Shown here: positions 1,855-34,871 of the stretch, one piece after another | Layout: each line of letters opens with the position of its first letter | Position numbering within the stretch: position 1 is the first letter of the stretch | Source of the DNA: Anaerolineae bacterium | GTDB taxonomy: Bacteria > Chloroflexota > Anaerolineae > J102 | Assembly: GCA_027002405.1 (NCBI GenBank) | Contig: JALWZT010000252.1 | Coordinates: forward strand, 1 to 47,081 | Reading direction: 5' to 3' | Length of the DNA stretch: 47,081 bases | The notes under the pieces: generated by a model | The model's database searches: none | Told to the model about the DNA's origin: nothing | The model's input: only the letters and a program-made list of their open reading frames with translations | Position numbers and translations under genes: made by a program

Positions 1855-4800
1855 TCATCTGAACATGGGCCACGCGGCATCCGACACCCACACGCTCTTG
1901 GGCCCCAGACGGTAGGTGGTGCCATTCACATACACCACCTCTAACCAATACCGGTATTGCCCGTGGTCCCGGACCATCCCATCCCACTGGTGATAGAGGC
2001 TTCCTTTGGGCATCCCCGCCCGTCGCGCGGACACAAAGCCTATTGGCACCGGCTCGGAAGCAGCACCAGGGATCAGCGCGGCACGCCACAGGCGGAACCC
2101 GGCGATCCATGTCTCGTTCATCGTCCGCCATGTGATCTCCACGATGCCCTCTCCGCCACGCGCCTGGAAGCTGGTAAATTCGATTCCGGTGGGGCTCTGA
2201 ATTCCCACCCGATCGCTGTCGGTTTTATCTGGCAAAGACTCCAACGCGCCCAACGGCCCGCTGGGCCCGTCCGGGTCCGCGGTGCCATCATGGGCTCGGG
2301 CCATGTTCGTTGTCTTGCCGCCCGGAAGCTGGGTCGTGTCCGCCTTGCCCGTGAACGTGATGACGACCGTGCGGGACAGGCCGGGCGCCAGGGGATTGCC
2401 ACCGAGCACGTCGGTCCAGGTGATGGTGCCGTCGTTGTTGTGGTCGTCGGAGTCGGGTTGGGCGTATTGGCCGTTGTTGCCGTAAGTCAGATACCCTGTG
2501 TTGTAGGTGTCTTCCAGGGGGAGGGTGGCCAGCCAGGTTTGGCCGGTGTTGGTGATGCGGATGGTGAAGCTGATGGGGGCTCCCACCCGTACCGGGTCGG
2601 GGGTGTTCAATTGTTTGGTGAGGGTGTAACTGGTGGTGATGGTGAAACCGAAGTCGATGGTGGGGTTGGTTTCGTTGGTGCCCAAGGTGAGGGAGACGTT
2701 GTGGTCCGTGGGGTCGCCGTCCGAGTCTTTGGTATCGTCGCCCACGTTTTGGGGGCTGGCGGTCCAGTTTTGCAGGGGGCCGGAGGTGAAGTTGGAGGCG
2801 TCCACGGTGACGGTGTAGGTTCCGGCCGCGAGGTTGGCGAAGGTGTACACGCCCGAGGCGTCGGTGGTCGTCGAGTCGGAGGCCGTGCCGCTGAGGGAGA
2901 GGGCCACGTTGGGGATGCCCGGTTCGCCCGCATCCTGGACGCCGTCCCGGTCGATGTCCCACCAGACCAGGTCGCCGATGCGGCCATTGGCCTGGATCAC
3001 GGTATTGGGTTCGGCACTATCCTCATCGTCATCGGGCAGGCCATCGTTCAGATCATCCACCGTGTGGTCCGCGGCCGGGTCTGAATCCACATCCTGTTGA
3101 TCCGCCTCGGTGACCTCGGCCCAGTTGGTGTAGTTGCCCGAGGCCAGCACCTCGGCCCGCAGATGCAATGTCACGCTGGCTCCATCGGCCAGGTTGCCGA
3201 TGGTCCACACGCCTGTGATGCTGTTGAAGGCGCCACTCCCGTCGTCGGAGACATAGCTGTAACCCGAGGGGAGCTGGTCGGTGACCTGCACACCTGTCGC
3301 GTCATTGGGGCCGCTATTCGTCACGGTGATGGTGAAGGTGATCACATCCCCCACATGGGGCGTGGTGTCGTTGATGTCTTTGGTCAGGCTGAGGTCGATA
3401 AGGGGCCGGAAGCCAAAGTCGAAGGTTTCGTCCACCTGATTGTCGGGGAAGTTGTTGGGCCCGGCCGCGCCGTTGCTGTCGCCGTTGCCGTTTTCGCCCG
3501 TGGGCAGGGCTGTCACATCGGTGATGGTGAAGTCCGGCCCTTCCACGGGGGTGCCAGAGCCGCCCGTTTGGGTGCCGTCGGAATCCTTGACGTCGCCACC
3601 GCCCTGATTGGGCGTTACGGCCAAGGGGGCAGAGGAGGGAGGTGTAGGAATCTGCACCCGATAGGTGCCGGGGATCAGCCCGCAGAATTGGTACTTGCCA
3701 TCGGAACCGGTGACGTAGGTGTAAACCTTGTCATCGCCTTGGGCCAGGCCCTGGCTGGCGCTGGTCTCGATGTTCCCATTGCTCCCGGCCCACACCAGGC
3801 GCACGCCCACGCCACTCAGGGCCGTGTCGCTGGCATCTTGCACGTTGGCAGTGGTCCCGGGGAAGTCATTCCATACGTAATTGCCCACGCAGGCCAGGGG
3901 CTGCCAGTAGTCCTCCACTTCGCCATTGCTGGCCGCACCGCCCCACTGGGTCCCGGTCAGGGTGTCGGTGGTCAGGCGGAAGCGCATGTGTACTTCGCCG
4001 CCGTCGAAGGTGGCGTGGCTGGGCACGACGGTGCAGATGATTTCGTTGTTTAGGTCGGTGTTGGCAGTCACCGTGGTCAGGGCGAAGGATTCGTCCTGGT
4101 CTACGCCGCCGCTGCCGTTATCGAAGTCCCCGTCGCCGTTCCAATCGACCCAGGCCATCAGGGTAGCCGCGCTGCTCAAGCCGTTGTGGGCCGTTACCCG
4201 GAAGCAGGCTTGGCCGTCCGGGATCAGCGGCGTCACCAGTTCCACGCCGTCCTCGTCGTCGTTGTTGCTACAGGTTCCTACTGCGGTGCCCGTGTTGCCG
4301 TCATCCCCCTTGCCGCTGCCGCCGCCTGCGGCGCCGGCATGGCCCGTGGTGTCTACCTGGCCGTCCCCTTCGCCATCGACGCAGGAACCCAGGTAGAGGT
4401 TGGAGGTGATGGTATGGTTGGGACCGCCTTGGGCGTTGGTGGTGTCGAAGCTGTCGGGCAGGTCGCCCCAGTCCTTGTTGTGGTAGAGACCCGCGTCCCA
4501 GGTGGTATTGTTCTCCCCGGCGCTGAGGTTGATGGCGCCGGTGCAGCCGGTGGAGGGGTCTGCGTCGCTATCGGTGGTGTCGGCGCCCTGGTTGGCGGGG
4601 CTGAAGGCGTAGCCCGAGGGCTTGATGAATTTCACCGAATAGGTCCCGGCCACCAGGTTGGTGAAGCTGTAGTTGCCGCTGCTGTTGGTGGTGGTGCTCT
4701 GGGCCGCGGTGCCGGAGCAGGAGCTGTTGGTGTACAGCTCCACGGTGACGTTCTGGATGCCCGTCTCGCCCGCGTCCTGGACGCCGTCCGCGTCGGTGTC

Positions 4801-9740: not shown

Positions 9741-12700
9741 TCACGGCATGGCGTGGGGCTGAGTGGAGGGCAAGAGCCACGTTTCCGTTGGCCCCAGGTG
9801 GTAGGCGCTCCCGTTCTGATAGAGGATTTCCAGCCAGTAACGATAGTGTGCTGGCCGCCGGACCAAAGGATCCTCGAAGCGATAGGCGTCGCCCGTCGTG
9901 ATGCCCGCATGCTGCGCGGGGATAAAGGCCACCTGGAGGGGAGCGGTGAAGTTGCCCGTGGGGAGCTCTATGGCCCGCCACACGCGGAAGCCGATGATGC
10001 GGCTCTCGTTCACCGTGCGCCAGGTCAGGAGCACCGCGCCGTCGTCGCCGCCTTCTGCATGGAAACTGCCCAGCTCGATGCCCGTGGGATTCTGGATGGT
10101 CACGTCGTCTTGGTCCGTTGCCGCGGGGAGGGACTCCAAGGCACCCAACGGCCCGCCGGGCCCGTCCGGGTCCGCGGTGCCGTCATGAGCCCGGGCCGTG
10201 TTCGTGGTCTTGCCACCGGGCAAAGAGGTGGTGTCTGCCTTGGTGGTGAACGTAACGACGACCGTGCGGGACAGGCCGGGCGCCAGGGGATTGCCGTCCA
10301 GAGCGTCGGCCCAGGTGATGGTGCCGTCGTTGTTGTGGTCGTCGGAATCGGGTTGGGCGTATTGCCCGTTGTTGCCGTAAGTCAGATACCCTGTGTTGTA
10401 GGTGTCTTCCAGGGGGAGGGTGGCCAGCCAGCTCTTCCCTGTGTTGGTAATGCGGATGGTGAAGCTGATGGGGGCTCCCACCCGTACCGGGTCATGGGTG
10501 TTCAATTGTTTGGTGAGGGTGTAGCTGGTGGTGATGGTGAAACCGAAGTCGATGGTCCGGTTGATCTCACCGGCGTTCAAGGTGACGCCCGCGTTGTGGG
10601 TGGTGGGATCCCCATCCGAATCGGTGGTGTCGTCACCCACGTTTTGCGGACTCGCTTCCCAATCTTGCAGGGGGCCGGAGGTGAAGTTGGAGGTGTCCAC
10701 GGTGACGGTGTAGGTTCCGGCCACCAGGTTGGCGAAGGTGTACACGCCCGAGGCATCGGTGGTCGTATTGGCCGAGGCGGTGCCGCTGAGGGAGAGGGCC
10801 ACGTTGGGGATGCCCGGCTCGCCCGGGTCCTGGACGCCGTCCCGGTCGATGTCCCACCACACGAGATCGCCCAACGAACCTCTGAGTTGACTCATGGGCA
10901 GATTGTTGAGGGCAATCTCCGGATCCCCCGGTTCTAAATTGAAGGTGAGATAGTAGGGGTTGTTGGCGCAGGTGTGGTCATCTAGATAGCCGTTATCATC
11001 CCCATCGTCGGAACCCAATTCATAGGGATCGGGCTGACCGGTGGGGTCCAATGGAGGTGGATCCTGGGAAGTGCAGGTGGGGCTCAGTTGGTAACCGGGG
11101 GGTGGCGTGACGGTCATGGTGTACACGCCAGGCGTGCCGTCTGTGTAGAATCGGTATGTGCCGTCGCTGCCGTCTTGGGTGATGGTGACCTGCCCGGGCC
11201 CATCCACGGTAATCGAACCGCCCGAGAGAATCTCGCCCGTGTCTTCATCATAGATGAAGCCGGCAGGATCAAAGCTCACGGGCGTGGGATCGTCCTCGCC
11301 AGGGTCGCCGGCATCCCCATTACCCGAGGAGTCGGGGTCTACATGGTTATCCGAGGTGTCCTGCACGGTCGTGCCTTGGGGGGTCTTCCCCGTGGCGACG
11401 GCCTGGTTGTGGAAGGGCCCCCTATTGGTGCCAGGCGTCACCATCGCGGTCAGGGTGATCACCCCGCTGGCCCCCACGTTCAGGACATCTGTGCCCGCCA
11501 GGAGGCTGATGTCCGTGGAGCCATCGTATCCCGAATTGACTGTGAAGTCAGAACTGGTGGGGGCGGCGCTGTTGACCGTGATGCCGGCAAAGGTTTGGGA
11601 GAGATCATCGGTGACCTGGACGTCACTCAAGGTCACATCGCCCAGATTTTCCACCCGGAGGGTGTAAACCACCGTGTAGGTGCCGTCGCCATTGTCCGTG
11701 ACGTGATGCACCCGTTTGGCAACGCCAATGGCGGGGTGTTCGGGCGTGACCGTTGCACTGTCCTGGTCGTCTTCGTTGGGATCGTGGTTGTTGGGCGTGG
11801 AGTCGTGGTCGGTCTGGTCCGCGGCCTTGACCTCCGCGGTGTTGGTGTAGGCGCCCGAAGCGTTGACCGTGGCCGTGATGTGCAGGGCGGTGGAGGCAGC
11901 GGCGTTGAGGGCGCCTACGCTCCATTCGCCGTTGGTGTGGTTGTAGCTGCCGCCGCTGTCGTCCGACACGTAAGTATAGCCCGAAGGCAGGGTGTCGGAG
12001 ATAACCACGCCCGTGGCATGGCTGGGGCCGCTGTTGGTGACGGTGATGGTGAAGGTGACGTTTTCTCCCACCTGGGGATGGGTGGGCGTGACGGTCTTGC
12101 TCAGGCTGAGGTCGATGAGGGAACTGACCGTGACGTCTTCATCATTCTCGGGGTCCTGGTCGGACGGTGTGTCTTCGTCCTGGCCCTGGGTTCCATCATC
12201 GTTGATGAGCGGATAGTTGGATGCCACCGCGTAGGCTGTGTTGTCGTAGGTGCCTGGGGTGAGAGAGGGGGCCGTATCTGCCAGGAAGGTGATGGTGACC
12301 GCGCCTCCGGCGTGGATGGTCCAATGCCCCCAGGTGGGAACGGCGTCCCCCGCAGAAGGTGAGACCGGGTTGGTGCGGCTGGCGTTGGTTTGGGTGATGG
12401 TGGCAGTGCTGGCATAGGTGAAGCCGCTGGGCAGGGTATCGCTGATGGTGACCTCCGTGGCCGCGTCCAGGCCCGTGTTGGATACGGCGATGGTGTAGGT
12501 CACCTGTTGGCCCGCGTACACCGTGGGCGTTGTTGTATCCTTGTCGATGAGCATGCTGGGCGCCACAATGGTGGCCAGATAATCTTCGACTTCGCCATCG
12601 GGCGCTGCTCCCCCCGACCCCAACGTGGCATCGGTACTGAGGCGGATGCGGAGGCCCACTGGCTGGTTCACCACCGCATTCGCCGGGACAGGGAAGGGGA

Positions 12701-15700
12701 GAGTGACCACGCTGTCGTTGGCTCCGGGGGCCACGGTAGCGGTGATGGCTTCGCCGGTATCGGCGAAGTCGCCATCGCCGTTGTAATCCATGAAGCCGTA
12801 GAGGGTGGCGGTGATGGCGCTGGTGTTGGTCACGGTCACGGGCACGGAAACGGTCTGGCCGGGCGTGAATTGGGGGATAATGACGCCGTCTTCATCGTCG
12901 CCATTGCCTGTTCCCTCTCCAACCGGCTGATCATCATCTGTCGCGTTGCCTGTGTCATCCACGCCATCCACAAAGCCATCGCTATCCGCGTCGATCTCTG
13001 TCCCCAGGAACAGGTCGATCTGACCATCGAAATCCGCGTCCAACAGCACATGGCTGGGCCCGCCATCCTGGTCCAGGGTTGCATAAGGTGAGGGCAGGTC
13101 CCCGCGGTCGCGGGAGATGAGACATCCCGTGCCGTCATTCACCACCGCGGGTTCGCTGCCGGTGCCCACCGGCTCCAGGGCGGGCGTTGCATCCGAGACA
13201 TCGATGCGATAGACCTGGTAGGGACCTGTGCCTGCGGCGTCGGTGTTGATCAGGGCATAGAGGTTGCCGCTTTGGTCGAACACCGCCCCCCCTTGTTGGT
13301 GGGGCACAGAGTCTTGCAGGAGTTTGCGGGTGATCACGCCCGTGGTGGGGTCGATTTTGATGAGACGGGTGGGGGAATAGCGGACCGCGTAGATGTTCCC
13401 ATCCTGGGGATTGAATGCGAAGTCTGCGGTGGCCAGATGCCCGGGACTGCCGTCCTCGGTCAGCGGGAGTACGTGGAAAGTCATGGCCCGCAGGTCGATG
13501 ACCGCCAATTGGGTGTTCGCGGACGCGTTCGCGTTGGAGCTCCCCACGTAGAACTTCTCGTTGCGGTCCACATCCCCTGCATTGAGCACGTTTTGGGCTA
13601 CCAGGGGGTCCCCCTGGGCAATGGCGTTGCCCTGGAAGGTGAGCGCATTCTCCGCCAGCACTTCGCCCAAGATCTGGAATCCCCCTGTGTTGGGATTGAT
13701 GCGGGCCAGGAGGCTTTTGCGAGGCGCGGGCTCATTCGAATCCCAGGTCATGGCGTAAATGTAGCCATCCTGGATGTTGAAGCCAATCGCGTTCAGGTCC
13801 TGCACCCCTGCTGTCAAATCCTGCACGATGGGCGGGGGCCCGCTGTCATGGGGGGTTTCGCCGATGGGGTCTGTGCTGAAATCCAGTTGGTCGAAGCGGA
13901 AGCGATAGTTATTGTCCGGGTTCGCGCGGGTCTGATAGAACGCGTCATTGCACTGGGCCACGCCCGCTTTGAAATCCCGGATGGTGAGGGGATAATCTTC
14001 CACTTCGCCATCGGGTGCGGGCCCGGTGGGGCCCACATTGGCGGCCGTGGTCAGGCGGAAGCGGGCATAGGTGTCGCCCGCGGTGACATCGTTGGGCACG
14101 GTCCACGCCAGGGTCGCGGTGGTATCGCCATTGTTGACGGAGGTCGCGGCCCCTTCGTCCGCGTCGAAGACGCCATTCCCGTCGAAGTCGATCCAGCCAT
14201 AGAGGTTGGCCGTGGTGGTGCTGGTCACGGTGACGCTGATGGTCCAGCGTCGCACAAAGCCTGCATCCGCGTTGGAGATTTCAAATTGGTCCGCGATATC
14301 CACGCCGTCCTCGTCATCCACCTTGTTGGTGTCGTCTCCGTCGGCATTCACCGTAGGCTGGCCATTGCTCTCTGCGTCGATGGTGTTACCCAGATGCAGC
14401 CCTGCGGTGATGACGTGGGTGGGACCATTGGTCGCGGCCGTGGTGCCGTAGGTGTCCGGCGCGTCGCCCCAATCCTGGTTGGGATAGAGGCCCGCGTCCC
14501 AGGTGGCATCGTCTTCCCCGGCGCTGAGGTTGATGGCGCCGGTGCAGCCGGTGGCGGGGTCTGGGTCGCTGTCGGTGGTGTCGTCACCCTGGTTGGCGGG
14601 GCTGAGGGCGTAGCCCGAGGGGGTGATGAACTTGACGGAATAGGTGCCGGCCGCCAGGTTGGTGAAGCTGTAGTTGCCGCTGCTGTTGGTGGTGGTGCTT
14701 TGGGCCGCGGTGCCGGAGCAGGTGCTGTTGGTATACAGCTCCACGGCGACGTTCGGGATGCCGGTCTCGCCTGCGTCCTGGACGCCGTCCGCGTCCGCGT
14801 CGTTCCAGACGAAATCCCCTAGGGACCCGGTTTGGAGTTGTTTGAAGCCGAAGTCGAGATCATGGTTGTTCTGCCCATGTCCGCCCGTGGTAAAGACCAC
14901 GCCGATATTTCCTGCACCGTCCACATTGGCTACGCCATCGCTATCTCGTTTATCCGCGCCGGGGTCGCTGCCGCCGTTGTCCGCCACCGTGGGACTGTTG
15001 ACGCCCGCGCCGCAGCTATTGATAATGGCCAACTGATTGGGATCGATTTTGATGCGGCATTGGGCGTTGCGTGGGATGATGTGGCTGCTGCTATCCCACG
15101 CGGCCGTGGGCCAGCCATTAGCCCCGTTGATATCGCCTGTGTTGTCTTTGAACAAATACTGCCCGTTGGCGTCCGTCGTCGTACTCGCGGTGGCCTCGTA
15201 GCCGTTGCCCGGATTGCCGTCGGTGTCGCATTCCAGGGTGACGGTAGCGCCACCGACGACCGATTCGCCGGGGTCTTGGACGCCATTTTCTGCGCCCACA
15301 CCGCCAACACCGGTATCACACCACAGCCGGTTGCCCACTTCCAACGGCGCAGGTGCAGAAAGATATTCTAAATCCCCTAGGCCGTTTCCCTTGGCAAAGG
15401 TGCCGTCGCCGGGGTTGGTACCGCCCGGCGAGGTGTCATAAATCCGATAAGCCCGGTTGCGTTGACCGGTCGTGTTATCCAACCATAAAATCCCACCATC
15501 GAAGAATTGATTGGTATCGTAAATGGGGTCGTATGCATCTTCAACCACTTCGCCGCGACCAGGGACGTTTACCAAGCCCGCCATGGATGTCTCGGTATGA
15601 TAGGGGTAATGCTCCTGATAGTAGAATTCTCCGCCCCCCGGTCCTTGGTTGTTATTGGCACCCCCCGTGGTATGGCCGCCACAGCTCCCATTGTTTTCTA

Positions 15701-17234
15701 GGGTCCATCCTCCTGCACCATCGGAACATGCTTTCAAAATGTCCCCCGCGCTATCGCCGGAATACATGGTGTTATCGGTCGGATCCGTGCTAAAGCGACG
15801 AAAACCCATCTGAGAACCGTAGCGGTCTTGGATCCCCAGCAGCATATCCTCACCGTCAAATTCGATATCGGTCAACCACGGCTGCGGATAAGCGACCTCC
15901 CCCGAATTGAATTGGGGTGATTGGAGATGGGCGAATGTAGGAGACCATGGATTCCAGTCCGCGTCGGAATCTTGGTTGGCATCAAGGGCATAGGAACGAT
16001 TATAAGTTAAGGGAATACTTAATTCGAGGGTAAATGTCCCGGGCGCCCCTGCATCGGTGGAATAAACAAAGGCTTGTAATTCGTTCCTGTTTTGAGAGGC
16101 CTCAGCAGTACAGGTCATGCCTATATAGACTTTGTCCTCATGAAAAGCCAGGGCAAAGGGCCGTAAGTCGTCTGAGCTTTGACATGGTGCGGTCAGAGGT
16201 AATGAGTACGTGGTGATATCCGCAATGCCCAGAGGCAAACCGGTGGTGGTAATAGGTATTTGGTAGAGTTCCTTGGTAAACAGGTTGATGGTCCATAATG
16301 TGCTCAAATCGTCGGAGATATCCAGGTCGCCAAAACCGATCCGGCCTACCTGATCCCATGAATCCGGATCATGATCCCAACAATCGACTTCATCTCCCGA
16401 CTGAGATGGCCAGGTGGTTCCCAATCCCCCCACACATTCGTTGGTAGCCGAGTTATATTGCACATGAGGATCGGTACCGGTTTGAGCACTCAAATCGGCA
16501 TAGACTGTGGTCACGCCATGGAGAATACGAAAGATCAGGCCTGTCTCACCGTGATTGCGGAACTTGGTATGCCGTTTCATAAATGCCGCCGCATAAAGCG
16601 CGTCCGTATTACGATCATAGGCAAGGCCCCAGGTTGTGCCGATATCCGTCTGGGTTGCTTCGACACTAGGCGCGGGGGTGTCAAAGCCATTGGGATCACC
16701 GTTATCGCAGCTCCCATCCAAATTGGCATCCACGCAACCCGCATTATAGTCAAAGGTTAGAAGCGCGCGATTCGAGCCGCTGCGATCGGCGTGATAATAG
16801 ATAGAGGTGGCTAAACGAATATTACTCCCGACGTATTCGTTCGGATTGTTGACACCGATGTTCACTTGGCTGGCCCCATCATCGGCAAATACGACGGTCG
16901 TACTCCCCGCCGCCCCATCAAAAAGATAAGGGGGGAGGCCGGTCACTTCGATGCGCCACGAGCCGCTCCCCGTCGCCAAGGAGAATGAACCATCTGTTGC
17001 CGTGGTCGTGGAAACGCTCCCGGTGCTTCCCGTAGCGCTGGCCGGATAGGCTGTCACGGTCACGTTAGGCACGCCCGGCTCATGGGCATCGCGCACCCCA
17101 TTGGCGTTGTAATCGCGAAAGACAACGCCTGTCATGCCGGAGGGCGTTGCCTCACTTGGAGGAGGCAACCTCAGTATCTCCATCGCCACCCACGCTAGAG
17201 CAACGACCAGAATAAAAACAAACCATTTTTTCAT
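9741..17234 (-). CDS. Giant SdrD B-like / DUF11 / GEVEDY / DUF6923-like surface protein (~2497 aa from the MKKWFVF start)
   Basis: Paralogue of 1855-7227. ATG at 17234 preceded by GGGAGAG Shine-Dalgarno; hydrophobic leader MKKWFVFILVVALAWVAMEIL. ORF track extends to 17297 using an upstream ATG. Same C-terminal domain (GIELGSFHAEGGDDGAVLLTWRTVNESRIIGFRVWRA). Confidence 0.9.
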   Translation of the reverse strand: MKKWFVFILVVALAWVAMEILRLPPPSEATPSGMTGVVFRDYNANGVRDAHEPGVPNVTVTAYPASATGSTGSVSTTTATDGSFSLATGSGSWRIEVTGLPPYLFDGAAGSTTVVFADDGASQVNIGVNNPNEYVGSNIRLATSIYYHADRSGSNRALLTFDYNAGCVDANLDGSCDNGDPNGFDTPAPSVEATQTDIGTTWGLAYDRNTDALYAAAFMKRHTKFRNHGETGLIFRILHGVTTVYADLSAQTGTDPHVQYNSATNECVGGLGTTWPSQSGDEVDCWDHDPDSWDQVGRIGFGDLDISDDLSTLWTINLFTKELYQIPITTTGLPLGIADITTYSLPLTAPCQSSDDLRPFALAFHEDKVYIGMTCTAEASQNRNELQAFVYSTDAGAPGTFTLELSIPLTYNRSYALDANQDSDADWNPWSPTFAHLQSPQFNSGEVAYPQPWLTDIEFDGEDMLLGIQDRYGSQMGFRRFSTDPTDNTMYSGDSAGDILKACSDGAGGWTLENNGSCGGHTTGGANNNQGPGGGEFYYQEHYPYHTETSMAGLVNVPGRGEVVEDAYDPIYDTNQFFDGGILWLDNTTGQRNRAYRIYDTSPGGTNPGDGTFAKGNGLGDLEYLSAPAPLEVGNRLWCDTGVGGVGAENGVQDPGESVVGGATVTLECDTDGNPGNGYEATASTTTDANGQYLFKDNTGDINGANGWPTAAWDSSSHIIPRNAQCRIKIDPNQLAIINSCGAGVNSPTVADNGGSDPGADKRDSDGVANVDGAGNIGVVFTTGGHGQNNHDLDFGFKQLQTGSLGDFVWNDADADGVQDAGETGIPNVAVELYTNSTCSGTAAQSTTTNSSGNYSFTNLAAGTYSVKFITPSGYALSPANQGDDTTDSDPDPATGCTGAINLSAGEDDATWDAGLYPNQDWGDAPDTYGTTAATNGPTHVITAGLHLGNTIDAESNGQPTVNADGDDTNKVDDEDGVDIADQFEISNADAGFVRRWTISVTVTSTTTANLYGWIDFDGNGVFDADEGAATSVNNGDTTATLAWTVPNDVTAGDTYARFRLTTAANVGPTGPAPDGEVEDYPLTIRDFKAGVAQCNDAFYQTRANPDNNYRFRFDQLDFSTDPIGETPHDSGPPPIVQDLTAGVQDLNAIGFNIQDGYIYAMTWDSNEPAPRKSLLARINPNTGGFQILGEVLAENALTFQGNAIAQGDPLVAQNVLNAGDVDRNEKFYVGSSNANASANTQLAVIDLRAMTFHVLPLTEDGSPGHLATADFAFNPQDGNIYAVRYSPTRLIKIDPTTGVITRKLLQDSVPHQQGGAVFDQSGNLYALINTDAAGTGPYQVYRIDVSDATPALEPVGTGSEPAVVNDGTGCLISRDRGDLPSPYATLDQDGGPSHVLLDADFDGQIDLFLGTEIDADSDGFVDGVDDTGNATDDDQPVGEGTGNGDDEDGVIIPQFTPGQTVSVPVTVTNTSAITATLYGFMDYNGDGDFADTGEAITATVAPGANDSVVTLPFPVPANAVVNQPVGLRIRLSTDATLGSGGAAPDGEVEDYLATIVAPSMLIDKDTTTPTVYAGQQVTYTIAVSNTGLDAATEVTISDTLPSGFTYASTATITQTNASRTNPVSPSAGDAVPTWGHWTIHAGGAVTITFLADTAPSLTPGTYDNTAYAVASNYPLINDDGTQGQDEDTPSDQDPENDEDVTVSSLIDLSLSKTVTPTHPQVGENVTFTITVTNSGPSHATGVVISDTLPSGYTYVSDDSGGSYNHTNGEWSVGALNAAASTALHITATVNASGAYTNTAEVKAADQTDHDSTPNNHDPNEDDQDSATVTPEHPAIGVAKRVHHVTDNGDGTYTVVYTLRVENLGDVTLSDVQVTDDLSQTFAGITVNSAAPTSSDFTVNSGYDGSTDISLLAGTDVLNVGASGVITLTAMVTPGTNRGPFHNQAVATGKTPQGTTVQDTSDNHVDPDSSGNGDAGDPGEDDPTPVSFDPAGFIYDEDTGEILSGGSITVDGPGQVTITQDGSDGTYRFYTDGTPGVYTMTVTPPPGYQLSPTCTSQDPPPLDPTGQPDPYELGSDDGDDNGYLDDHTCANNPYYLTFNLEPGDPEIALNNLPMSQLRGSLGDLVWWDIDRDGVQDPGEPGIPNVALSLSGTASANTTTDASGVYTFANLVAGTYTVTVDTSNFTSGPLQDWEASPQNVGDDTTDSDGDPTTHNAGVTLNAGEINRTIDFGFTITTSYTLTKQLNTHDPVRVGAPISFTIRITNTGKSWLATLPLEDTYNTGYLTYGNNGQYAQPDSDDHNNDGTITWADALDGNPLAPGLSRTVVVTFTTKADTTSLPGGKTTNTARAHDGTADPDGPGGPLGALESLPAATDQDDVTIQNPTGIELGSFHAEGGDDGAVLLTWRTVNESRIIGFRVWRAIELPTGNFTAPLQVAFIPAQHAGITTGDAYRFEDPLVRRPAHYRYWLEILYQNGSAYHLGPTETWLLPSTQPHAMP

Positions 17235-17687
17235 TAGAAAACTCTCCCAATAAGAGAAACTTGCTTTTTGTGTTTCCTTCCCTTTGGGCGAAGCCATAAA
17301 GCTCGAGTCTGGCGAAAATTATGTTGGTCGCTTTTCACGCCATTTTTTCGACACGAATTAAGCGAATTTGGCGAATTTTTCTTATCCTTTTTCGTGAAAT
17401 TCGTGTTCATTCGTGTCAAGATCAAAAAACGCCAGTGCCCAGCATAAAGGATGCAGAACGCGGAGATGCTCAAAAATCAGTGTTTAATCAAATGCGGAAG
17501 CGTGAAAATGAATCGTTGGCTCTCCCCCTGTTATCAGAGTGTTTTGTAACTGCTGATGAAACGCCTTCTATTTAGTATAGCAGAAGGGATATCAACAAGA
17601 ACCTGTCGTAAGCGGCAAAAGTGCTCCGTAAGGGAGAGTCATCAGTGATCAGTAATCAGTGATCAGTCATCCGTCATCAGTGTTCAG

Positions 17688-18903: not shown

Positions 18904-19074
18904 AATACGGCATGGTTCAGATCGTCTATCCGGCATCTTTGCAATGTCAGATGGCCAGCGTTTGGCAAAGCGCGTCAAACGTCAAAGCGTAGCGAAATGA
19001 CCACGCTGGACGTTGGACATTGGACGTTGTAAAGATAAACCATGCCAGAAATAAAAAGTTCGAGGTCATCTATT

Positions 19075-20511
19075 ATGCGTAGAACCTTTTCGCTGTTCAT
19101 TGTCCTGGCGTTGCCACTTCTTCTGGCTGCTTGCGCTCCTGGCGGCGATTCGCTGGACGCCCAACTGCAAACGGCCATCCAGGGCAACCGCCTTGCTCCC
19201 TTGCAGCCTGCGCCCGAAGTCTCACCCGCGAAGCTGCGATTGGGACAATACCTCTTCTTCGACAAAGAACTCAGCGGCAACCGTGACACATCCTGCGCCA
19301 CCTGTCACCAGCCCCTGGCCGACACCGTCGATCACTTGCCGCTGCCCATCGGTACAGGGGGGACGGGCGTGGCGCCCAACCGCCATTTGGGGCCACTAAA
19401 ACCGCTGGTGGCCCGCAACACCCCCGCCCTCTTCAACCTGGGCCAGCCCGGGTGGCGCACCATGTTTTGGGATGCCCGGGTGGAAAAGCTGGAGGAGGGC
19501 ACCATCATCGCCCGCACCAGCCAGGGGCCGGTGGCGCTGCCCCCGGACCTGGAAAACGTGGTGGCCGCGCAGGCCCTCTTCCCGCCCGCGGCCCGGGCGG
19601 AAATGCGGGGCTTCAAGGGGGACCCCATGCGCCAATCGCCGGGCGATGTGGACATCTTCGGCCGGGAGAACGAGCTGGCCAAATTCCAGGATAATGATTT
19701 CCCCGCCATCTGGCAGGGCCTCTGGCAGCGTATCACCGCCATTCCCGAATACGTGGACCTGTTGCAACAGGCCTATCCCGATACCCCCGTGGAAGCCATG
19801 GGGCCTCAGCATCTGGCCAACGCCATCGCCGCCTTTCAGATCGACGCCTTCACCTTCACCCAAAGCCCCTGGGATCGGTACCTGGCGGGAGACAAACACG
19901 CGCTTTCCCCTGAAGCCAAGCGGGGGGCCTTGCTCTTTTTTGGCCGAGCCGGATGTAGTGTCTGCCACCACGGCCCCCTCTTCACCGATCAGCGGATGCA
20001 CAACATTGCTGCGCCCCAGATCGGGCCGGGCAAGCAGCCCGCCATCGAGCATCGCGACTACGGGCGTTTCCTCATCACCCGGCAGGAAGAAGACCTCTTC
20101 GCCTTTCGCACGCCCTCTCTGCGCAACGTGACCCTCACCGGCCCCTACCTGCACAATGGCGCGTACGAGCGTTTGGAAGATGTCATTCGTCATCACATGA
20201 ACCCGGAGCAGGCTCTGGCCAACTACGACGTGATGCACCTGCCGCCCGAAGTACGCCAGCGCACCTGGATCAGCGAAAGCCTGAACCGGGCCATGCTCGA
20301 CCGCCTTGATCCCCGGCTGCAGGTTCCCGCGCATCTCACCGATGAAGAGATTCGCGACCTGCTGGCTTTTCTGGATGCGCTGACCGACCCCGCGGCCAGG
20401 GACCTGTCCAAAACCATCCCCGACCGGGTCCCCAGCGGGCTCCCTGTCTCCGACGACCCCGCGGTCATGCAACGTTTCCTCCAGGACCATCCCTTTGTCC
20501 ATCATCCCTAA
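19075..20511 (+). CDS. Di-haem cytochrome c peroxidase / MauG-family lipoprotein
   Basis: Two CXXCH motifs (SCATCHQ, GCSVCHHG); LRLGQYLFFDKELSGNRDTSCATCHQP; lipobox LLLAACAPGG. ORF opens at 19042 but the 19075 ATG gives a proper signal peptide. Confidence 0.9.
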   Translation: MRRTFSLFIVLALPLLLAACAPGGDSLDAQLQTAIQGNRLAPLQPAPEVSPAKLRLGQYLFFDKELSGNRDTSCATCHQPLADTVDHLPLPIGTGGTGVAPNRHLGPLKPLVARNTPALFNLGQPGWRTMFWDARVEKLEEGTIIARTSQGPVALPPDLENVVAAQALFPPAARAEMRGFKGDPMRQSPGDVDIFGRENELAKFQDNDFPAIWQGLWQRITAIPEYVDLLQQAYPDTPVEAMGPQHLANAIAAFQIDAFTFTQSPWDRYLAGDKHALSPEAKRGALLFFGRAGCSVCHHGPLFTDQRMHNIAAPQIGPGKQPAIEHRDYGRFLITRQEEDLFAFRTPSLRNVTLTGPYLHNGAYERLEDVIRHHMNPEQALANYDVMHLPPEVRQRTWISESLNRAMLDRLDPRLQVPAHLTDEEIRDLLAFLDALTDPAARDLSKTIPDRVPSGLPVSDDPAVMQRFLQDHPFVHHP

Positions 20512-20584: not shown

Positions 20585-20624
20585 AAAAAGCCCCGTCAGA
20601 CGTAAGAACTGGCGGGGCTTTTTG
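20585..20624. terminator. Strong intrinsic (bidirectional-looking) terminator
   Basis: AAAAAGCCCCGTCAG - acgtaagaa - CTGGCGGGGCTTTTT; 15-bp stem with one G-T wobble. Confidence 0.92.
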
Positions 20625-20707
20625 CATGTTGAGAGTGAACACAGGATGGGCGCCCTGAGCTGTGTTCTCAACCTTCCATCCTATTCCCTTTCAAAGGAGG
20701 CACTCTC

Positions 20708-20788
20708 ATGATTACTTTTGTGTGGCTTTGGGCGCTCCTCGGAGCCATTTCCACCGGGGATGATGAACCCATCAGCGACCCCTGGTAA
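20708..20788 (+). CDS. Small hydrophobic peptide, copy 1: MITFVWLWALLGAISTGDDEPISDPW (26 aa)
   Basis: Shine-Dalgarno AAAGGAGG 7 nt upstream of ATG; duplicated at 21031-21111 with hydrophobic core conserved and mixed synonymous/non-synonymous differences. Below ORF-track length cutoff. Confidence 0.65.
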   Translation: MITFVWLWALLGAISTGDDEPISDPW

Positions 20789-20798
20789 GTCAACATGG

Positions 20799-20833
20799 CA
20801 ATGGATCGGAACTGCCGGCGTTCCGGTCCATTG
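20799..20833. terminator. Hairpin CAATGGATCGGAAC-tgccggc-GTTCCGGTCCATTG after small ORF 1
   Basis: 14-bp stem with one wobble, 7-nt loop; same hairpin follows small ORF 2. No U-tract, so it could be another RNA structure. Confidence 0.55.
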
Positions 20834-20935
20834 CTTATGCCAGTCCACAATTGGGCTTCTCATGCCGGGCGCCGACAAAGCCACGGCTGTACCTGCTGCA
20901 TCCTATTGGAAATTGCCCCACTGCCTCGATATCTT

Positions 20936-20964
20936 TTGTCTCCGGCGAGGGGTTGCGCTATAAT
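20936..20964 (+). promoter_or_regulatory. Predicted sigma-70-type promoter TTGTCT-N17-TATAAT for small ORF 2
   Basis: -35 at 20936-20941, 17-nt spacer, -10 at 20959-20964. Confidence 0.7.
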
Positions 20965-21030
20965 GTGAAATGCGTGCTCAAGACGTGTTCTCAACCTTCC
21001 ATCCTATTCCCTTTCAAAGGAGGCACTCTC

Positions 21031-21111
21031 ATGATTACCTTGGTGTGGCTTTGGGCGCTCCTCGGAGCCATTTCCACCGGGGGTGATGAGCCAGGCAACC
21101 CCCCCTGGTAA
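21031..21111 (+). CDS. Small hydrophobic peptide, copy 2: MITLVWLWALLGAISTGGDEPGNPPW (26 aa)
   Basis: Same AAAGGAGGCACTCTC-ATG initiation region as copy 1. Its sequence forms the tail of the reported 86-aa ORF 20851..21111. Confidence 0.68.
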   Translation: MITLVWLWALLGAISTGGDEPGNPPW

Positions 21112-21121
21112 CCTGGCAGCC

Positions 21122-21152
21122 ATGGATCGGAACTGCCGGCGTTCCGGTCCAT
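21122..21152. terminator. Hairpin ATGGATCGGAAC-tgccggc-GTTCCGGTCCAT between small ORF 2 and CHAT stop
   Basis: Same stem-loop as 20799-20833, lying between convergent genes. Confidence 0.55.
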
Positions 21153-21155
21153 TGC

Positions 21156-24156: not shown

Positions 24157-24846
24157 TCAAGTCAGGTGGACCCGTAAAACAAGGGCTGGAGTCGAGTCCC
24201 TATCCAGATAGGGCACTTCAACTCCAGCCAAAAATACCTGTCCTTGCTCATCGGTCTTTCGTTGCAAGATGCGTCCCAGCAACACCATGGTGACCGGAAC
24301 GCCCCGGGCCGCCCCTTCAGGGGTGACAAGGGTCAACAGCAACCCCCCCTCTCCATCGTCTGCGGTTTCCCTTATCTGCTCTAGCGAATAATACCAGCCC
24401 TCTGGATCATCCAGTAACCCGGCACTCAACAGCAGGGTCTCCTCTCGCCCCAGGGCACCCCGTAGGACGTCTTCTTTATTCGGAGGGGTTATATCCTTGT
24501 AGAAAATGGTGATGTCAATATCCGTGTCACTGAGTCGTTGGGAGTTGGGGGATCGTTGATAGAAATCATACGTTCGTTGCAATTCCGCGCGGCAAGTCTC
24601 GCATTGGGCCAGGTGCTCCAATAAGGGATGTTGCGCCCATGCATCCTCCTGCCCATGCGCGAGATCCCAGGCATATTGGGCGAGAGCGATATGATGCTCT
24701 TCACAGGCATCCGCGATCAGGAGGGAGGAGAGATGAGGGGGGAACTCGGTATCGGATGTCCGATTTTCGATGATGCGCCACAGTTTTTGTTCCAGATACG
24801 CGAGCGCTTGTTTGTCGAAAATAGGGTTGTCAGCCATATGAAACAC
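24157..24846 (-). CDS. Zinc-finger (HxxxCxxC, anti-sigma/zf-HC2-like) protein, cistron upstream of CHAT
   Basis: HPLLEHLAQCETCRAELQ motif; ends about 1 nt before the CHAT start (likely translational coupling). Confidence 0.7.
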   Translation of the reverse strand: MFHMADNPIFDKQALAYLEQKLWRIIENRTSDTEFPPHLSSLLIADACEEHHIALAQYAWDLAHGQEDAWAQHPLLEHLAQCETCRAELQRTYDFYQRSPNSQRLSDTDIDITIFYKDITPPNKEDVLRGALGREETLLLSAGLLDDPEGWYYSLEQIRETADDGEGGLLLTLVTPEGAARGVPVTMVLLGRILQRKTDEQGQVFLAGVEVPYLDRDSTPALVLRVHLT

Positions 24847-24849
24847 TGC

Positions 24850-25540
24850 TTCGTAAATAGGATTTGGATCAGGATTAGGATTGAGATCATCAGGACAACG
24901 TTGAGCGAGGCGGCAACGGGCGTGATGCGTGAAACGTGAAACGTGAGGTCATTACGCATCACGCATTACGCATCACGTACTTGGCTTCCCGCGCCAACGT
25001 GGCCGCGAGGCGTTTTCATTGGTATCGGCGAACTGCCGTTCGTGGTGACTGCTTTGTAAATAGAGTAATCAGTGATCAGTTATCAGTGTTCAGTAGCACT
25101 CCCGTGGCCAGCCCGCAGGGCTTCGTATCCGTAGCTCGGAGGTTTAGCTCCGAGCAGAAGAAACAGCGCTGCGTGCCTAGCCGGAATTATCCGGCGCTGT
25201 TTTATAGCCCGGCGACTTCATCGCCTTCATCGCCGGGCGGGCTTCGGTCGGCTAGACAACGCCGAAAAATAGTGCCACGATGGAAAAGGCGACAACGAAA
25301 CGTCATTCCGAGGGAGCGAAGCGACCGAGGAATCTAGCGAAGCGCAAAAAACCACGGCATGGCGCTCGCTTCGCTCGCTAGATGCTTTGCTCCCTCCGGT
25401 CGCTCAGCATGACGAACATCTGCGGGAATCTGCGTTGCATCTGCGTGCATCTGCGTTCTCTCCACTTGCGACTTGCCACTTGCAAACCTGCTTGGCGCTC
25501 TTTGCGACTTGGCGTGAGATTTTCCTCGGTATCGGCGCGC
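24850..25540. repeat. Composite intergenic repeat island 1
   Basis: Contains GGATTA hexamers, GTGAAAC/ACGCATC heptamer hairpin, ATCAGTN heptamers, GCTCGGAG/GCCGGA/GCCCGGCGA hairpins, GGAGCGAAGCGACCGAGG inverted repeat, CTGCGT/TTGCCAC tracts; modules recur elsewhere in the window. Confidence 0.85.
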
Positions 25541-25542
25541 CA

Positions 25543-26361
25543 TTACTTGGGCCGTTCATCAGGAGGATATTTTTTGCGCAGGGCCTGCAAAGCGCGACTC
25601 CGCCATGTGGTGGCTTCGGGGACAGACACGCCAAAAAAGGCCGCCAGCTCTCCATTGGTGAAGTCGAAGAGGTAAATCAACAGCAAAATCACCCGATAGC
25701 GCCGATGGGAGATCTGACGAATGGCTTCCAGCAGCATTTCTCGCTGGATGTGCGCTTGAAGCCAATCTTCGCCTGACCGGTCTCGCTGTGGGAGCTCAGG
25801 ATGGAGTTCGATATCGTCAATCAGGGGGATGATCTTGCGGATATCATCCTTGATGATGTTTTGGGCGGTCTGCCGCAGCCATGGTTCCAGCTCGGTGTCG
25901 TAAAAATAATTTTCGAGCAGGGCCAAAGAAAGCCTGGCCGCCAGTTCCTCTCGCAGATCCGGGGGAGGATGCCGATGGGCTAACCTGACATAGGTGCTGG
26001 AAACGATCCGATGGATCAGGGTCATGACATTTTCATGCCCTTCTTCTCGGCTCCTTTGCCATTTTGCGGAATAGGCCATATAGCCATGGACCACCCGGTC
26101 CAGCCATTCGAGATAGGAAATCTCCTGTTGATTCGCGTGTTGCTCGTACTTCTGAACCCGATAGAATCGACGTACGGCTTTTGGGGTGGCAAGTTTTTCC
26201 ACCAGGTAGGCGACGTCGGATTCCTTGACGTTTGCCTGGGAACAGTCTTGTAATCGCCCTCGGATCAATGCAGCTAAATAACCTTTCGCCGTGGCATTCC
26301 AGTTTTCCGACGGCGTTGGAGGAAAAGGAAAAGGCGGCGGCCATGCAGGTGTCACGGACAT
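25543..26361 (-). CDS. Sigma-70-family RNA polymerase sigma factor
   Basis: C-terminal sigma-4-like HTH: HRRYRVILLLIYLFDFTNGELAAFFGVSVPEATTWRSRALQALRKKYPP. Confidence 0.85.
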   Translation of the reverse strand: MSVTPAWPPPFPFPPTPSENWNATAKGYLAALIRGRLQDCSQANVKESDVAYLVEKLATPKAVRRFYRVQKYEQHANQQEISYLEWLDRVVHGYMAYSAKWQRSREEGHENVMTLIHRIVSSTYVRLAHRHPPPDLREELAARLSLALLENYFYDTELEPWLRQTAQNIIKDDIRKIIPLIDDIELHPELPQRDRSGEDWLQAHIQREMLLEAIRQISHRRYRVILLLIYLFDFTNGELAAFFGVSVPEATTWRSRALQALRKKYPPDERPK

Positions 26362-26666
26362 TTACTTTACCCTGATGAGAAGGCGGTGGGAAAGCTCCAA
26401 TCAGAGTATAGCAAATGTCCTTGCTTTCATGAAAACGCAACGGGTTATCGCTGCTGGGATCGGGGGCGTTTCACTCCAACCACGGAGTTTACGCTGATCT
26501 TGGAGAAGGCTATCAGGAGTTCTATAAAACCCGTGCGGTCTGTAATTGAAACTGCCTTGACCTGAAAAGTGATCAACAGGATGTTCGTCAAATCCAGTAC
26601 CACTACTAAAAATATGTTTTACGATGACCGAATATGTCACTGTGTCATCCGAAACTGTTCCGTAAA

Positions 26667-27310
26667 TAGGATCAGGATTAGGATTGAGGATTGTCAGGCC
26701 GAAGTTAGGCGCGAGCAGGAGTAATCAGTGATCAGTTATCAGTTATCAGTAATCAGTTGCGGGGCTAGCCGGATTCATCCGGCGCCGTTTTATAGCCCGG
26801 CGACTTCATCGCCGGGCGGGCGTGGTGGACGACACTTCGCTCGGTTAAACCACGCCAAATGTCTGCTATGTAAATAGGATTCGGATCAGGATTAGGATTG
26901 CGGATCGCCAGGCCGACGTTGGGCGAGGCGGCAAAGGTTCGTATTGCGTATTCCGTATTCCGTCCAGTCGTTACGCAATACGCAATACGGAATACGAGTC
27001 ACGCCGCCCTGGCCGCGAGGCATTTTCGTCGGTATCGGCGAACTGCCGTTCGTGGTGACTGCTTTGTAAATAGGATTCGGATCAGGATTAGGATTGAGAT
27101 CGTCAGGCCGACGTTGAGCGAGGCGACAGCGGGCGTGATGCGTGAAACGTGAAACGTGAGAGCCTTACGCATCACGCATTACGCATCCCGGGCTCGGCTT
27201 CCCGCGCCAACGTGGCCGCGAGATGTTTTCATCCGTATCGGCGCGCTGCCGCGCGTGGCGACTGCTTTGTAATAGAGTAATCAGTAATCAGTTATCAGTA
27301 ATCAGTAGAG
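26667..27310. repeat. Composite intergenic repeat island 2, two adjacent ~200-bp units with different palindromic cores
   Basis: Units begin TTTGTAAATAGGATTCGGATCAGGATTAGGATTG... and end CGGTATCGGCGAACTGCCGTTCGTGGTGACTGCTTTGTAA; cores are CGTATTG/CGTATTC (26938-27000) or GTGATGC/GTGAAAC (27138-27190). Confidence 0.85.
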
Positions 27311-33254: not shown

Positions 33255-33665
33255 CAGGTGGAGGGAACGCAGTCGCCACGAGCGGCGGCTCGCCGATACC
33301 GAGGAAAACGCCTCGCGGCCAGGCTGGCGCGGGAAGCCACGCACGTGATGCGTAAGGCGTGACGCGTAAGGCTCTCACGTTTTACGTTTCACGCATCACG
33401 CCCGTTGCCGTCTCGCTCAACGTAGGCCTGGCGATCCTTCCGCAACCGACGACCATGCTATTTTTAAAGCAGTCCGACGGCGGGCCACCCCGCGCCGATA
33501 CCGACGAAAATGCCTTGCGGCCAGGGCGGCGTGACTCGTATTCCGTATTGCGTATTGCGTAACGACTGGACGGAATACGGAATACGCAATACGAACCTTT
33601 GCCGACTCGCCCAACGTCGGCCTGGCGATTCCTCAGCAACCAGCGATCATTCTATTTTCATAGCA
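33255..33665. repeat. Composite intergenic repeat island 3 (inverted relative to island 2)
   Basis: Two ~200-bp units in reverse orientation, one with the GTGATGC core and one with the CGTATTC core. Confidence 0.85.
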
Positions 33666-33666
33666 G

Positions 33667-34644
33667 TCACTTGCGATACAACTCACGAAACTCCTCCGGA
33701 CTTTGCGCCGTGCGGATGGCTTTCTCCAGGATACGCAGGATGCCCAGATCGGTAATGGCTTCTATCTCGGGCATGAGCTTCAGCCCTTCCATCCCGAACT
33801 TCAACTCCAGGCCCAGGGCGATGGCTTCCAATACGCCCTCGCGATAGCCTTGCTCACGTCCCCGTTCCAGGCCCTCTTCCCGCCCGCGCATCAGGCCCTC
33901 CATAAGGCCTTCTCCGCGGCCTTCTTCTCGCCCGCGCGCCAGGCCTTCTTCCAGGCCCTCCTGGAAACCTTGCTTGAACCCTTCTTTCAGGCCCTCTTCC
34001 AGGCCTTCCTGTTTGATCAGTTCATAGCCAAAGGATTGTATCATCAGGTCCCTCCGTCGATTCAAGAGATGCCGGGCCAGGTCCTTGGACACCAGCCCTG
34101 CCATCAAGGTCATATTCGTCAACATGTCCGCCTTGGCCTCCTCCGTCAGATCGCTGTCCACGATGGCCCGCTCCGCCTCTACGGCCACATCCACGCCCCC
34201 TTGCATCAGCGGCGTCAGGGGCATGAGACACACCTTGTTTTCGCGGAGGACCTCGGCCGCATCCAGCTCATACGGTTTCACCAGGCGGAAGCGGTAGTCC
34301 ACTTCCCGGTCGTGGTAGTGGTCCGTGGCCGAGGGGGAGGGCCGGAGGAGCATGACCACGGTGATGGCATCCAGCTCCTCCCGTAGCACATGCCGGGCCC
34401 GATACTCCAGCAGGCGCTGGGGCATGTTCCGCTGCCAGTAGGTCTGGAACTCGATGAGGACGAGGAATTCTTCCCCATCCTCTTGCACGACGCGCAACAG
34501 GAAATCGCTGGTGCGCACGCTGGTGGTTTCCCAGGGCCGTTCCTCCATGAGGGTACTGCTGGTCACAGGGATGTCCAGCAGGTCGCGCAGGATGGCGGCG
34601 TGACAATGGCGGAGAAGTTCCTTGAGCGCGGCGTCGTACTTCAT
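33667..34644 (-). CDS. Rpn/PD-(D/E)XK-family putative transposase/nuclease
   Basis: SDFLLRVVQEDGEEFLVLIEFQTYWQRNMPQRLLEYRARHV; C-terminal [ER]GxxEG tetrad repeats typical of this family. Confidence 0.85.
   Translation of the reverse strand: MKYDAALKELLRHCHAAILRDLLDIPVTSSTLMEERPWETTSVRTSDFLLRVVQEDGEEFLVLIEFQTYWQRNMPQRLLEYRARHVLREELDAITVVMLLRPSPSATDHYHDREVDYRFRLVKPYELDAAEVLRENKVCLMPLTPLMQGGVDVAVEAERAIVDSDLTEEAKADMLTNMTLMAGLVSKDLARHLLNRRRDLMIQSFGYELIKQEGLEEGLKEGFKQGFQEGLEEGLARGREEGRGEGLMEGLMRGREEGLERGREQGYREGVLEAIALGLELKFGMEGLKLMPEIEAITDLGILRILEKAIRTAQSPEEFRELYRK
33829..34008 (-). repeat. 12-bp coding tandem repeat encoding ~15 xGxx tetrads
   Basis: EGLEEGLKEGFKQGFQEGLEEGLARGREEGRGEGLMEGLMRGREEGLERGREQGYREGVL. 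Confidence 0.85.
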
Positions 34645-34715
34645 GAACTATGAGAGGAGCAAGGAGATTGTAGGGGGATTGTAGCACAGAGCGGCGGGTT
34701 GGGCAACGGCTTCCG

Positions 34716-34871
34716 GGTTAGGATCAGGATTAGGATTAGGATCAGGATTAGGATTGGGGTTGGGCGATATGAGTGATGGCTCACCGCATAACGACGAGAA
34801 TGAGAACGCAGATTTGCGCAGATGCAACGCAGATTTCCACTGATTACTGATCACTGATTACTGATTACTCT
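34716..34871. repeat. GGATTA/GGATCA hexamer array plus CGCAGAT and ATCAGTN tracts
   Basis: TTAGGATCAGGATTAGGATTAGGATCAGGATTAGGATTGGGG ... CGCAGATTTGCGCAGATGCAACGCAGATTTCCACTGATTACTGATCACTGATTAC. Confidence 0.9.

What the first reader, a model, noticed from the sequence alone, without database searches (positions are those of the whole stretch)
20662..21155. Tandem pair of unannotated 26-aa Trp-rich hydrophobic peptides convergent with a TPR-CHAT protease
Seen: two ~170-bp repeats, each with a perfect AAAGGAGG Shine-Dalgarno, a 26-codon ORF (MITFVWLWALLGAISTGDDEPISDPW / MITLVWLWALLGAISTGGDEPGNPPW) and an identical-loop 3' hairpin. Core residues are conserved while third positions also vary (ACT/ACC, GAA/GAG, CCC/CCA), which argues for coding. 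Copy 2 has its own TTGTCT-N17-TATAAT promoter. Known: tandem small hydrophobic ORFs are typical of type I toxins (Ldr, Ibs), and CHAT proteases act in bacterial conflict systems by cleaving dedicated partners (Craspase/Csx30, CHAT next to gasdermins). Inference: the peptides may be membrane effectors or substrates controlled by the CHAT protein.
Basis: partly seen in the sequence, partly recalled or inferred. Interest (0 to 1): 0.82.

Follow-up and report, generated by a model that had tools for sequence, protein, structure and literature searches.

The report
Tiny exported peptides paired with caspase-like protease
Next to a caspase-like protease gene and its sigma/anti-sigma switch, these Chloroflexota bacteria carry a tiny gene for a hydrophobic, probably exported peptide, and the same pairing recurs in at least eight bacterial families, which suggests an undescribed peptide-signalling system that works through a protease.

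Summary
Two SD-led 26-aa ORFs (20708-20788, 21031-21111) sit in a 92% identical tandem repeat, convergent with a TPR-CHAT gene. They are coding and not local: every relative with assembled DNA 3' of the orthologous CHAT gene (4 of 4) has a 23-25 aa homologue there, all ending in (D/E)P...W. The CHAT gene belongs to a cassette: sigma factor, Zn-motif anti-sigma-like protein, TPR-CHAT. Across the class (about 20 CHAT loci, 8 families) the same spot, about 45-260 nt beyond the CHAT stop and convergent, holds a small SD-led ORF with a hydrophobic or signal-peptide N-terminus and a short tail: ...PW, ...DPPWG, or C-x(2-5)-C. An unbiased scan of 454 kb put 17 of 22 such ORFs there. TPR sequences match Rap/NprR pheromone receptors best among natural solved proteins. 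Best reading (inferred): the peptide is a secreted signal or ligand sensed by TPR-CHAT, which cleaves the anti-sigma and frees the sigma factor; RRNPP-like input wired to a Craspase-like output. The toxin reading is not supported; CHAT linkage is strongly supported. Whether the peptide is ligand, substrate or export reporter needs experiments.

The parts
20585..20623 (+). terminator-like hairpin; its loop carries CGTAAGA (20601-20607), close to the TG[TCA]AAG motif seen upstream of other peptide genes
   Evidence: TG[TCA]AAG in 12 of 21 upstream regions, shuffles mean 1.5, max 6
20638..20666 (+). leader hairpin of copy 1 with inner palindrome GGGCGCCC (20648-20655); GAGCGCTC in relatives
   Evidence: palindrome in 8 of 21 peptide leaders, shuffles mean 0.16
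20693..20700 (+). Shine-Dalgarno AAAGGAGG, copy 1
20708..20788 (+). small peptide gene, copy 1 (26 aa, MITFVWLWALLGAISTGDDEPISDPW)
20798..20834 (+). 3' hairpin, copy 1
20936..20964 (+). sigma-70-like box TTGTCT-N17-TATAAT before copy 2
   Evidence: chance expectation 0.5
21016..21023 (+). Shine-Dalgarno AAAGGAGG, copy 2
21031..21111 (+). small peptide gene, copy 2 (26 aa, MITLVWLWALLGAISTGGDEPGNPPW)
21119..21155 (+). 3' hairpin, copy 2, between the two convergent stop codons
21156..24155 (-). TPR-CHAT protease (999 aa); H868, H872 and C912 invariant in the aligned orthologues
24157..24846 (-). anti-sigma-like protein (229 aa) with H-x3-C-x2-C zinc-type motif and C-terminal beta domain
25543..26361 (-). 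sigma factor, sigma-70 region 4 (272 aa)

Best explanation
The ORFs are a peptide partner of a sigma factor / anti-sigma / TPR-CHAT signalling cassette. Shown: they are coding, they recur convergent beside the CHAT gene in relatives and in other families, and their form is a hydrophobic or signal-peptide N-terminus plus a short tail with a fixed C-terminal end. Inferred: the peptide is exported and trimmed to its C-terminal tail (in three loci the piece after a predicted AxA site is only 8-10 residues: DAFDPPWG, DPIPCSAC, DPSTCGGPGC); the tail is taken up or retained and bound by the TPR superhelix; binding switches the CHAT protease; the protease cuts the zinc-motif anti-sigma protein; and the freed sigma factor transcribes its regulon, probably including the peptide gene (autoinduction). 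In the window the peptide gene is duplicated and the tail has diverged between the copies.
For: Convergent homologue at the orthologous CHAT gene in 4 of 4 relatives with assembled flank: G001, G011, G018, G009. A profile search of 397 class genomes found only these copies plus one more in G009 at E<1e-6. Same layout with other tails in further families; 17 of 22 exported-type small ORFs in 454 kb lie within about 350 nt of the CHAT stop, convergent. Profile A5 on 9 whole genomes: 8 of the 9 hits below 1e-9 are CHAT-linked, the ninth is a copy with an internal stop. Sigma and anti-sigma-like genes directly upstream of CHAT in most loci. Tail type follows the CHAT tree: 11 changes, shuffled mean 20.2, as low in 0 of 200; a separate 13-member CHAT clade has no such peptide. 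TPR part: best natural matches in the PDB are Rap3T, RapF, RapI and NprR. Anti-sigma profile: top two PDB hits, both weak, are the anti-sigma factors RsiW and DdvA. Upstream motif TG[TCA]AAG in 12 of 21, and a 16-nt identity between the peptide and sigma-gene upstream regions in G009. Precedent: Csx29 TPR-CHAT cleaves Csx30, an inhibitor of an ECF sigma factor (PMC10028731).
Against: No binding, export, cleavage or expression data. TPR similarity is generic: the G036 orthologue matches kinesin light chain better than Rap. The window peptides lack a basic n-region and a clear cleavage site, so export is less clear than in relatives. No importer or dedicated exporter is in the cassette. About a dozen related cassettes have no detectable peptide gene. 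The TG[TCA]AAG motif is not general at sigma-gene promoters. Homology between the W-tailed and Cys-tailed peptides is not shown; they may be analogous.
Confidence: 0.45

Rival explanations
1. Export or envelope-stress reporter: the peptide is made and exported all the time; when export fails it stays inside, its tail is seen by TPR-CHAT, and the sigma factor is released. The Cys-pair tails could add redox sensing.
For: Signal-peptide form with very short mature tails; a sigma/anti-sigma output is typical of envelope stress; C-terminal Cys in the Cys-tailed class.
Against: Tail diversification by clade and between the tandem copies fits a specificity tag better than a general reporter; the W-tailed class has no Cys.
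Confidence: 0.2
2. Substrate or effector: the peptide is a membrane-active effector that CHAT cuts and thereby switches on or off.
For: Tight linkage with an intact protease (H868, H872, C912); strongly hydrophobic N-termini.
Against: No conserved internal residue fit for a cleavage site; the conserved part is the extreme C-terminus; a likelier substrate, the anti-sigma-like protein, is encoded between sigma and CHAT.
Confidence: 0.18
3. Output gene: the peptide is a secreted antimicrobial or surface peptide merely transcribed by the cassette's sigma factor.
For: ECF-like spaced motif TG[TCA]AA-N16-20-C[GC]TCC before five peptide genes, shuffles mean 0.06; an orphan copy in G009 away from CHAT.
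Against: An output gene would not be expected to stay at one spot beside the regulator across 8 families; mature tails of 8-10 residues are short for a bacteriocin; no immunity gene was seen.
Confidence: 0.12
4. Type I toxin pair (Ldr/Ibs-like).
For: Tandem small hydrophobic ORFs.
Against: No antisense RNA family; relatives are mostly single copy; signal-peptide form in other families; conservation sits at the C-terminal tail.
Confidence: 0.05

Closest known systems
RRNPP peptide quorum sensing (Rap-Phr, NprR-NprX, Rgg-SHP)
   Same: Small hydrophobic or signal-peptide propeptide gene adjacent to a TPR protein within -60 to 400 bp; TPR array matching Rap and NprR in sequence; variable C-terminal tail
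   Different: Receptor is about 940-1145 aa with a CHAT protease, not a 250-500 aa DNA-binding or phosphatase-interacting protein; genes convergent; Chloroflexota, while the RRNPP papers consulted describe Firmicutes/Bacillota
Craspase / CASP module of type III-E CRISPR (Csx29, Csx30, CASP-sigma)
   Same: TPR-CHAT protease encoded with a sigma factor and a sigma-inhibiting protein
   Different: No Cas7-11 or crRNA in the cassette; the inhibitor-like protein is an unrelated zinc-motif protein; a small peptide gene is added
CalpL/CalpT/CalpS-type CRISPR proteolytic sigma release (from general knowledge; CalpL paper PMC11417357 listed)
   Same: Protease plus anti-sigma plus sigma logic
   Different: Lon-type protease activated by cyclic oligoadenylate, no peptide
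Type I toxins Ldr/Ibs
   Same: Tandem short hydrophobic ORFs
   Different: No antisense RNA found, conserved C-terminal tail, linked to a protease/sigma cassette

Membership tests
RRNPP quorum sensing (definition in PMC10075063) | propeptide of 10-100 aa adjacent to the receptor gene, -60 to 400 bp | tested here: met
   23-77 aa, 44-256 nt from the CHAT stop
RRNPP quorum sensing (definition in PMC10075063) | receptor with tetratricopeptide repeats | tested here: met
   Pfam TPRs; Rap/NprR hits
RRNPP quorum sensing (definition in PMC10075063) | receptor length 250-500 aa | tested here: not met
   999 aa; relatives mostly about 940-1145 aa
RRNPP quorum sensing (definition in PMC10075063) | propeptide secreted and mature peptide bound by the TPR domain | not testable with these tools
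   signal-peptide form only, by inspection; no binding data
Type III-E Craspase | Cas7-11 effector and crRNA activate TPR-CHAT | tested here: not met
   the cassettes hold sigma, anti-sigma-like protein, CHAT and peptide; no CRISPR-type array among the window's short-range repeats
Type III-E Craspase | Csx29-like CHAT protease with catalytic His/Cys | tested here: met
   invariant H868, H872, C912; the G036 relative hits Csx29 at 3.9e-7
Type III-E Craspase | Csx30-type inhibitor of the sigma factor | tested here: not met
   the profile of the anti-sigma-like protein hits RsiW and DdvA weakly, not Csx30; fold search inconclusive
Type I toxin-antitoxin | antisense or cis RNA antitoxin | tested here: inconclusive
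   no Rfam antitoxin at gathering score; unknown families not covered
ECF-type sigma / zinc anti-sigma pair | sigma region 4 protein next to a H-x3-C-x2-C zinc-motif protein | tested here: met
   Pfam Sigma70_r4_2, conserved H/C motif; binding of the two proteins not tested

The most novel reading that the evidence does not exclude
A new kind of bacterial cell-cell signalling in Chloroflexota: clade-specific exported peptides, Trp-tailed or Cys-looped, act as pheromones for TPR-CHAT receptor-proteases that switch on a dedicated sigma factor by cutting its anti-sigma; it may be an evolutionary source or sibling of the CRISPR Craspase output module.
Probability: 0.35. Interest if true: 0.92.

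Novelty: new variant of a known kind. Interest (0 to 1): 0.8.

Why it matters
It would be a peptide-sensing system whose receptor is itself a caspase-like protease, in a large, hard-to-culture phylum, and it would suggest what TPR-CHAT proteases with sigma/anti-sigma partners do outside CRISPR. It turns an open question (what activates stand-alone bacterial CHAT proteases) into a direct test: add a 7-10 residue peptide to a purified protein and look for cleavage of the neighbour gene's product. No paper in the held library links CHAT proteases with pheromones or TPR-CHAT with quorum sensing.

Tried and rejected
The exact leader pattern in 85k species hit only Caldilineales/Chloroflexi records plus one archaeal chance match without a peptide, and nothing in viral contigs. 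Rfam: only sub-threshold hits, dominated by the upstream terminator. The anti-sigma model has no good PDB match. No library family for the peptides in Pfam or NCBIfam; the best is Phr_nterm at E=0.007, far below its cut-off. A shared promoter at the sigma genes was found in G009 and loosely in two more, not generally. More distant CHAT genes elsewhere in the phylum showed no such peptide.

Full report
What is in the window. The second ORF stops 44 nt before the stop codon of a minus-strand gene for a 999-aa TPR-CHAT protein (Pfam CHAT 4.7e-46). The CHAT gene is preceded on its own strand by a gene for a 229-aa protein with a conserved H-x3-C-x2-C motif, and before that by one for a 272-aa protein with sigma-70 region 4.

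The ORFs are coding and conserved. DNA and single-peptide searches of relatives found nothing convincing. Searching with the CHAT and the 229-aa protein instead gave seven relatives with the CHAT/anti-sigma-like pair. In all four whose contigs continue past the CHAT stop there is a convergent SD-led ORF of 23-25 codons: MLSILQLLWLLGAIWNDEPGTEPW (G001), MFTLFHLFWLFGALWSDDPGDPSW (G011), MLSIMQLLWLLAVLFSEPGDPPW (G018), MLSNLPWYGLRSVDAGQNEPTDPPW (G009). In the other three the contig ends inside or just after the CHAT gene. A profile of these six peptides, run on 397 genomes of the class, found one further copy (G009, MSIWQLLWLLGLLFAHDEPGDPPW, E=4e-7; not next to CHAT) and then only noise. Over the seven genes the reading frame has 103 synonymous codon differences against 31 and 18 in the other frames. 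Invariant are one Pro and the C-terminal Trp; the (D/E)P...W tail is the best-kept part, while the N-terminal half mostly keeps its hydrophobic character. Record titles of relatives in the same family name Caldilineales / Chloroflexi.

The pairing is general. A CHAT gene from another family (G036) was used to collect CHAT loci over 299 genomes of the class. At two G036 loci the convergent small ORF encodes a 35-aa signal-peptide precursor ending ...ALADAFDPPWG. In other families the same spot holds MKGKIKLLLLVALTTALLVLPQVVAYADPIPCSAC (G188), MRKQLRVIFLALVAAALLALPYIAAADPSTCGGPGC (G181), and 57-77 aa precursors ending CPGSGC, CPGTGC, CHGGGC, CHGIGC, CIGGGC, CDCSFDC, CQCPGGDC, CGCPNGC, GGAGGC, or C..GG-type tails. 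In total about 20 CHAT loci in 8 families carry one. To guard against picking what I wanted to see, I scanned both strands of all 454 kb of held CHAT loci for SD-led, hydrophobic, 20-85 aa ORFs outside long ORFs: 17 of about 22 hits lie convergent within about 350 nt of the CHAT stop, a place that makes up 1.8% of the searched strand length (binomial 6e-26; the loci share ancestry, so this overstates the independence). A simpler control over the 3' ends of 232 genes gave 24 hits; those with a recognisable signal-peptide or W-tailed product are at CHAT genes, except the G009 orphan. On the CHAT tree the tail types cluster (11 changes; shuffled mean 20.2, 0 of 200 as low), and a well-supported 13-member clade of other TPR-CHATs has no such peptide. 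About a dozen CHATs within the peptide-bearing clades also lack one, so losses, divergence beyond recognition or relocation occur.

The cassette. Profiles built from a few members find the sigma and anti-sigma-like genes immediately upstream of CHAT in most loci, and in several families a second sigma/anti-sigma-like pair just beyond the peptide gene. The anti-sigma-like label rests on gene order, the zinc-type motif, and weak PDB hits whose top two are the anti-sigma factors RsiW and DdvA (E 0.06 and 0.16); the sigma label rests on Pfam. The CHAT catalytic residues are invariant in the aligned orthologues. The TPR array is modelled with good confidence over residues about 15-550, the CHAT part poorly. 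By sequence, the best natural solved relatives of the CHAT alignment are the RRNPP pheromone receptors Rap3T (5.9e-9), RapF, RapI and NprR, with kinesin light chain and a CHAT-domain protein (8rot) also listed; for the G036 relative they are kinesin light chains and Csx29. By fold the TPR part resembles LGN, Rap3T bound to pheromone, and separase. TPR arrays resemble each other, so this is supportive, not decisive.

Regulatory signals. A TG[TCA]AAG motif lies 40-115 nt before 12 of 21 peptide starts (shuffles: mean 1.5, maximum 6); in five peptide genes a TG[TCA]AA box is spaced 16-20 nt from a C[GC]TCC box and looks like an ECF -35/-10 pair (shuffles mean 0.06). In G009 the peptide and the sigma gene share the 16-mer TGCAAGAATTCGGCCC upstream. 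A palindrome GAGCGCTC or GGGCGCCC sits in the leader of 8 of 21, always in the W-tailed classes. I infer, weakly, that the cassette's sigma factor transcribes the peptide gene.

Mechanism. The best-supported statement is that the peptide is a dedicated partner of the sigma/anti-sigma/TPR-CHAT cassette; I would put that near 0.85. Its role is inferred. A short tail behind an export sequence, with a fixed C-terminal end and clade-specific content, next to a TPR protein, is the anatomy of a peptide pheromone and its receptor. A TPR-CHAT protease with a sigma factor and an anti-sigma-like protein is the anatomy of the Craspase output, where Csx29 cleaves Csx30 and relieves inhibition of an ECF sigma factor (PMC10028731). 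Joined, they give: peptide binds TPR, CHAT cuts anti-sigma, sigma acts, more peptide is made. I give that 0.45. Rivals are an export-failure reporter, a CHAT substrate/effector, and a mere output peptide. It is not an RRNPP member (receptor size and effector domain fail) nor a Craspase (no Cas7-11, no Csx30), but it may work like both.

Limits. Signal peptides were judged by eye (basic n-region, hydrophobic core, AxA), not by a dedicated predictor. Many loci are MAG contigs; in G195 the end of the CHAT frame is disrupted in the assembly. Homology between Trp- and Cys-tailed peptides is unproven. The literature library is open-access only, so an earlier description elsewhere cannot be excluded.

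Noticed in passing
L090:7595-9616, L087:758-2443, L091, L136, L137, L142, L143: A second sigma/anti-sigma-like gene pair lies just beyond the peptide gene in several families, so the peptide sits between two sigma modules.
   Followed up: partly
L085 (G009 C380), reverse strand 380-454: Orphan copy of the W-tailed peptide with the same leader, next to rod-shape (mreC/rodA-type) genes and a remnant of the gene that flanks the G001 copy.
   Followed up: partly
L182:4691-4879 (G133 C71): A decayed Cys-tailed peptide copy (internal TAG) with no cassette gene detected within about 5 kb.
   Followed up: yes
window 20585-20623; G001, G011 and G009b upstream regions: The hairpins upstream of the W-tailed genes share a GTAAG loop while their stems differ; the same GTAAG motif appears without a terminator stem in G036, so it may be a promoter element inside a terminator.
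   Followed up: partly
window 24900-27300 and 33300-34800: Intergenic stretches rich in degenerate repeats (GGATCAGGATTAGGATTG, ATCAGTAATCAG and others), including between the sigma and anti-sigma-like genes.
   Followed up: no
window 1855-7227 and 9741-17297, minus strand: Two very long ORFs (1790 and 2518 aa) with internal repeats, probably surface proteins; not studied.
   Followed up: no
window 19042-20511: Di-haem cytochrome c peroxidase-like gene upstream of the peptides; in G001 a different gene is there, so it is not part of the module.
   Followed up: partly
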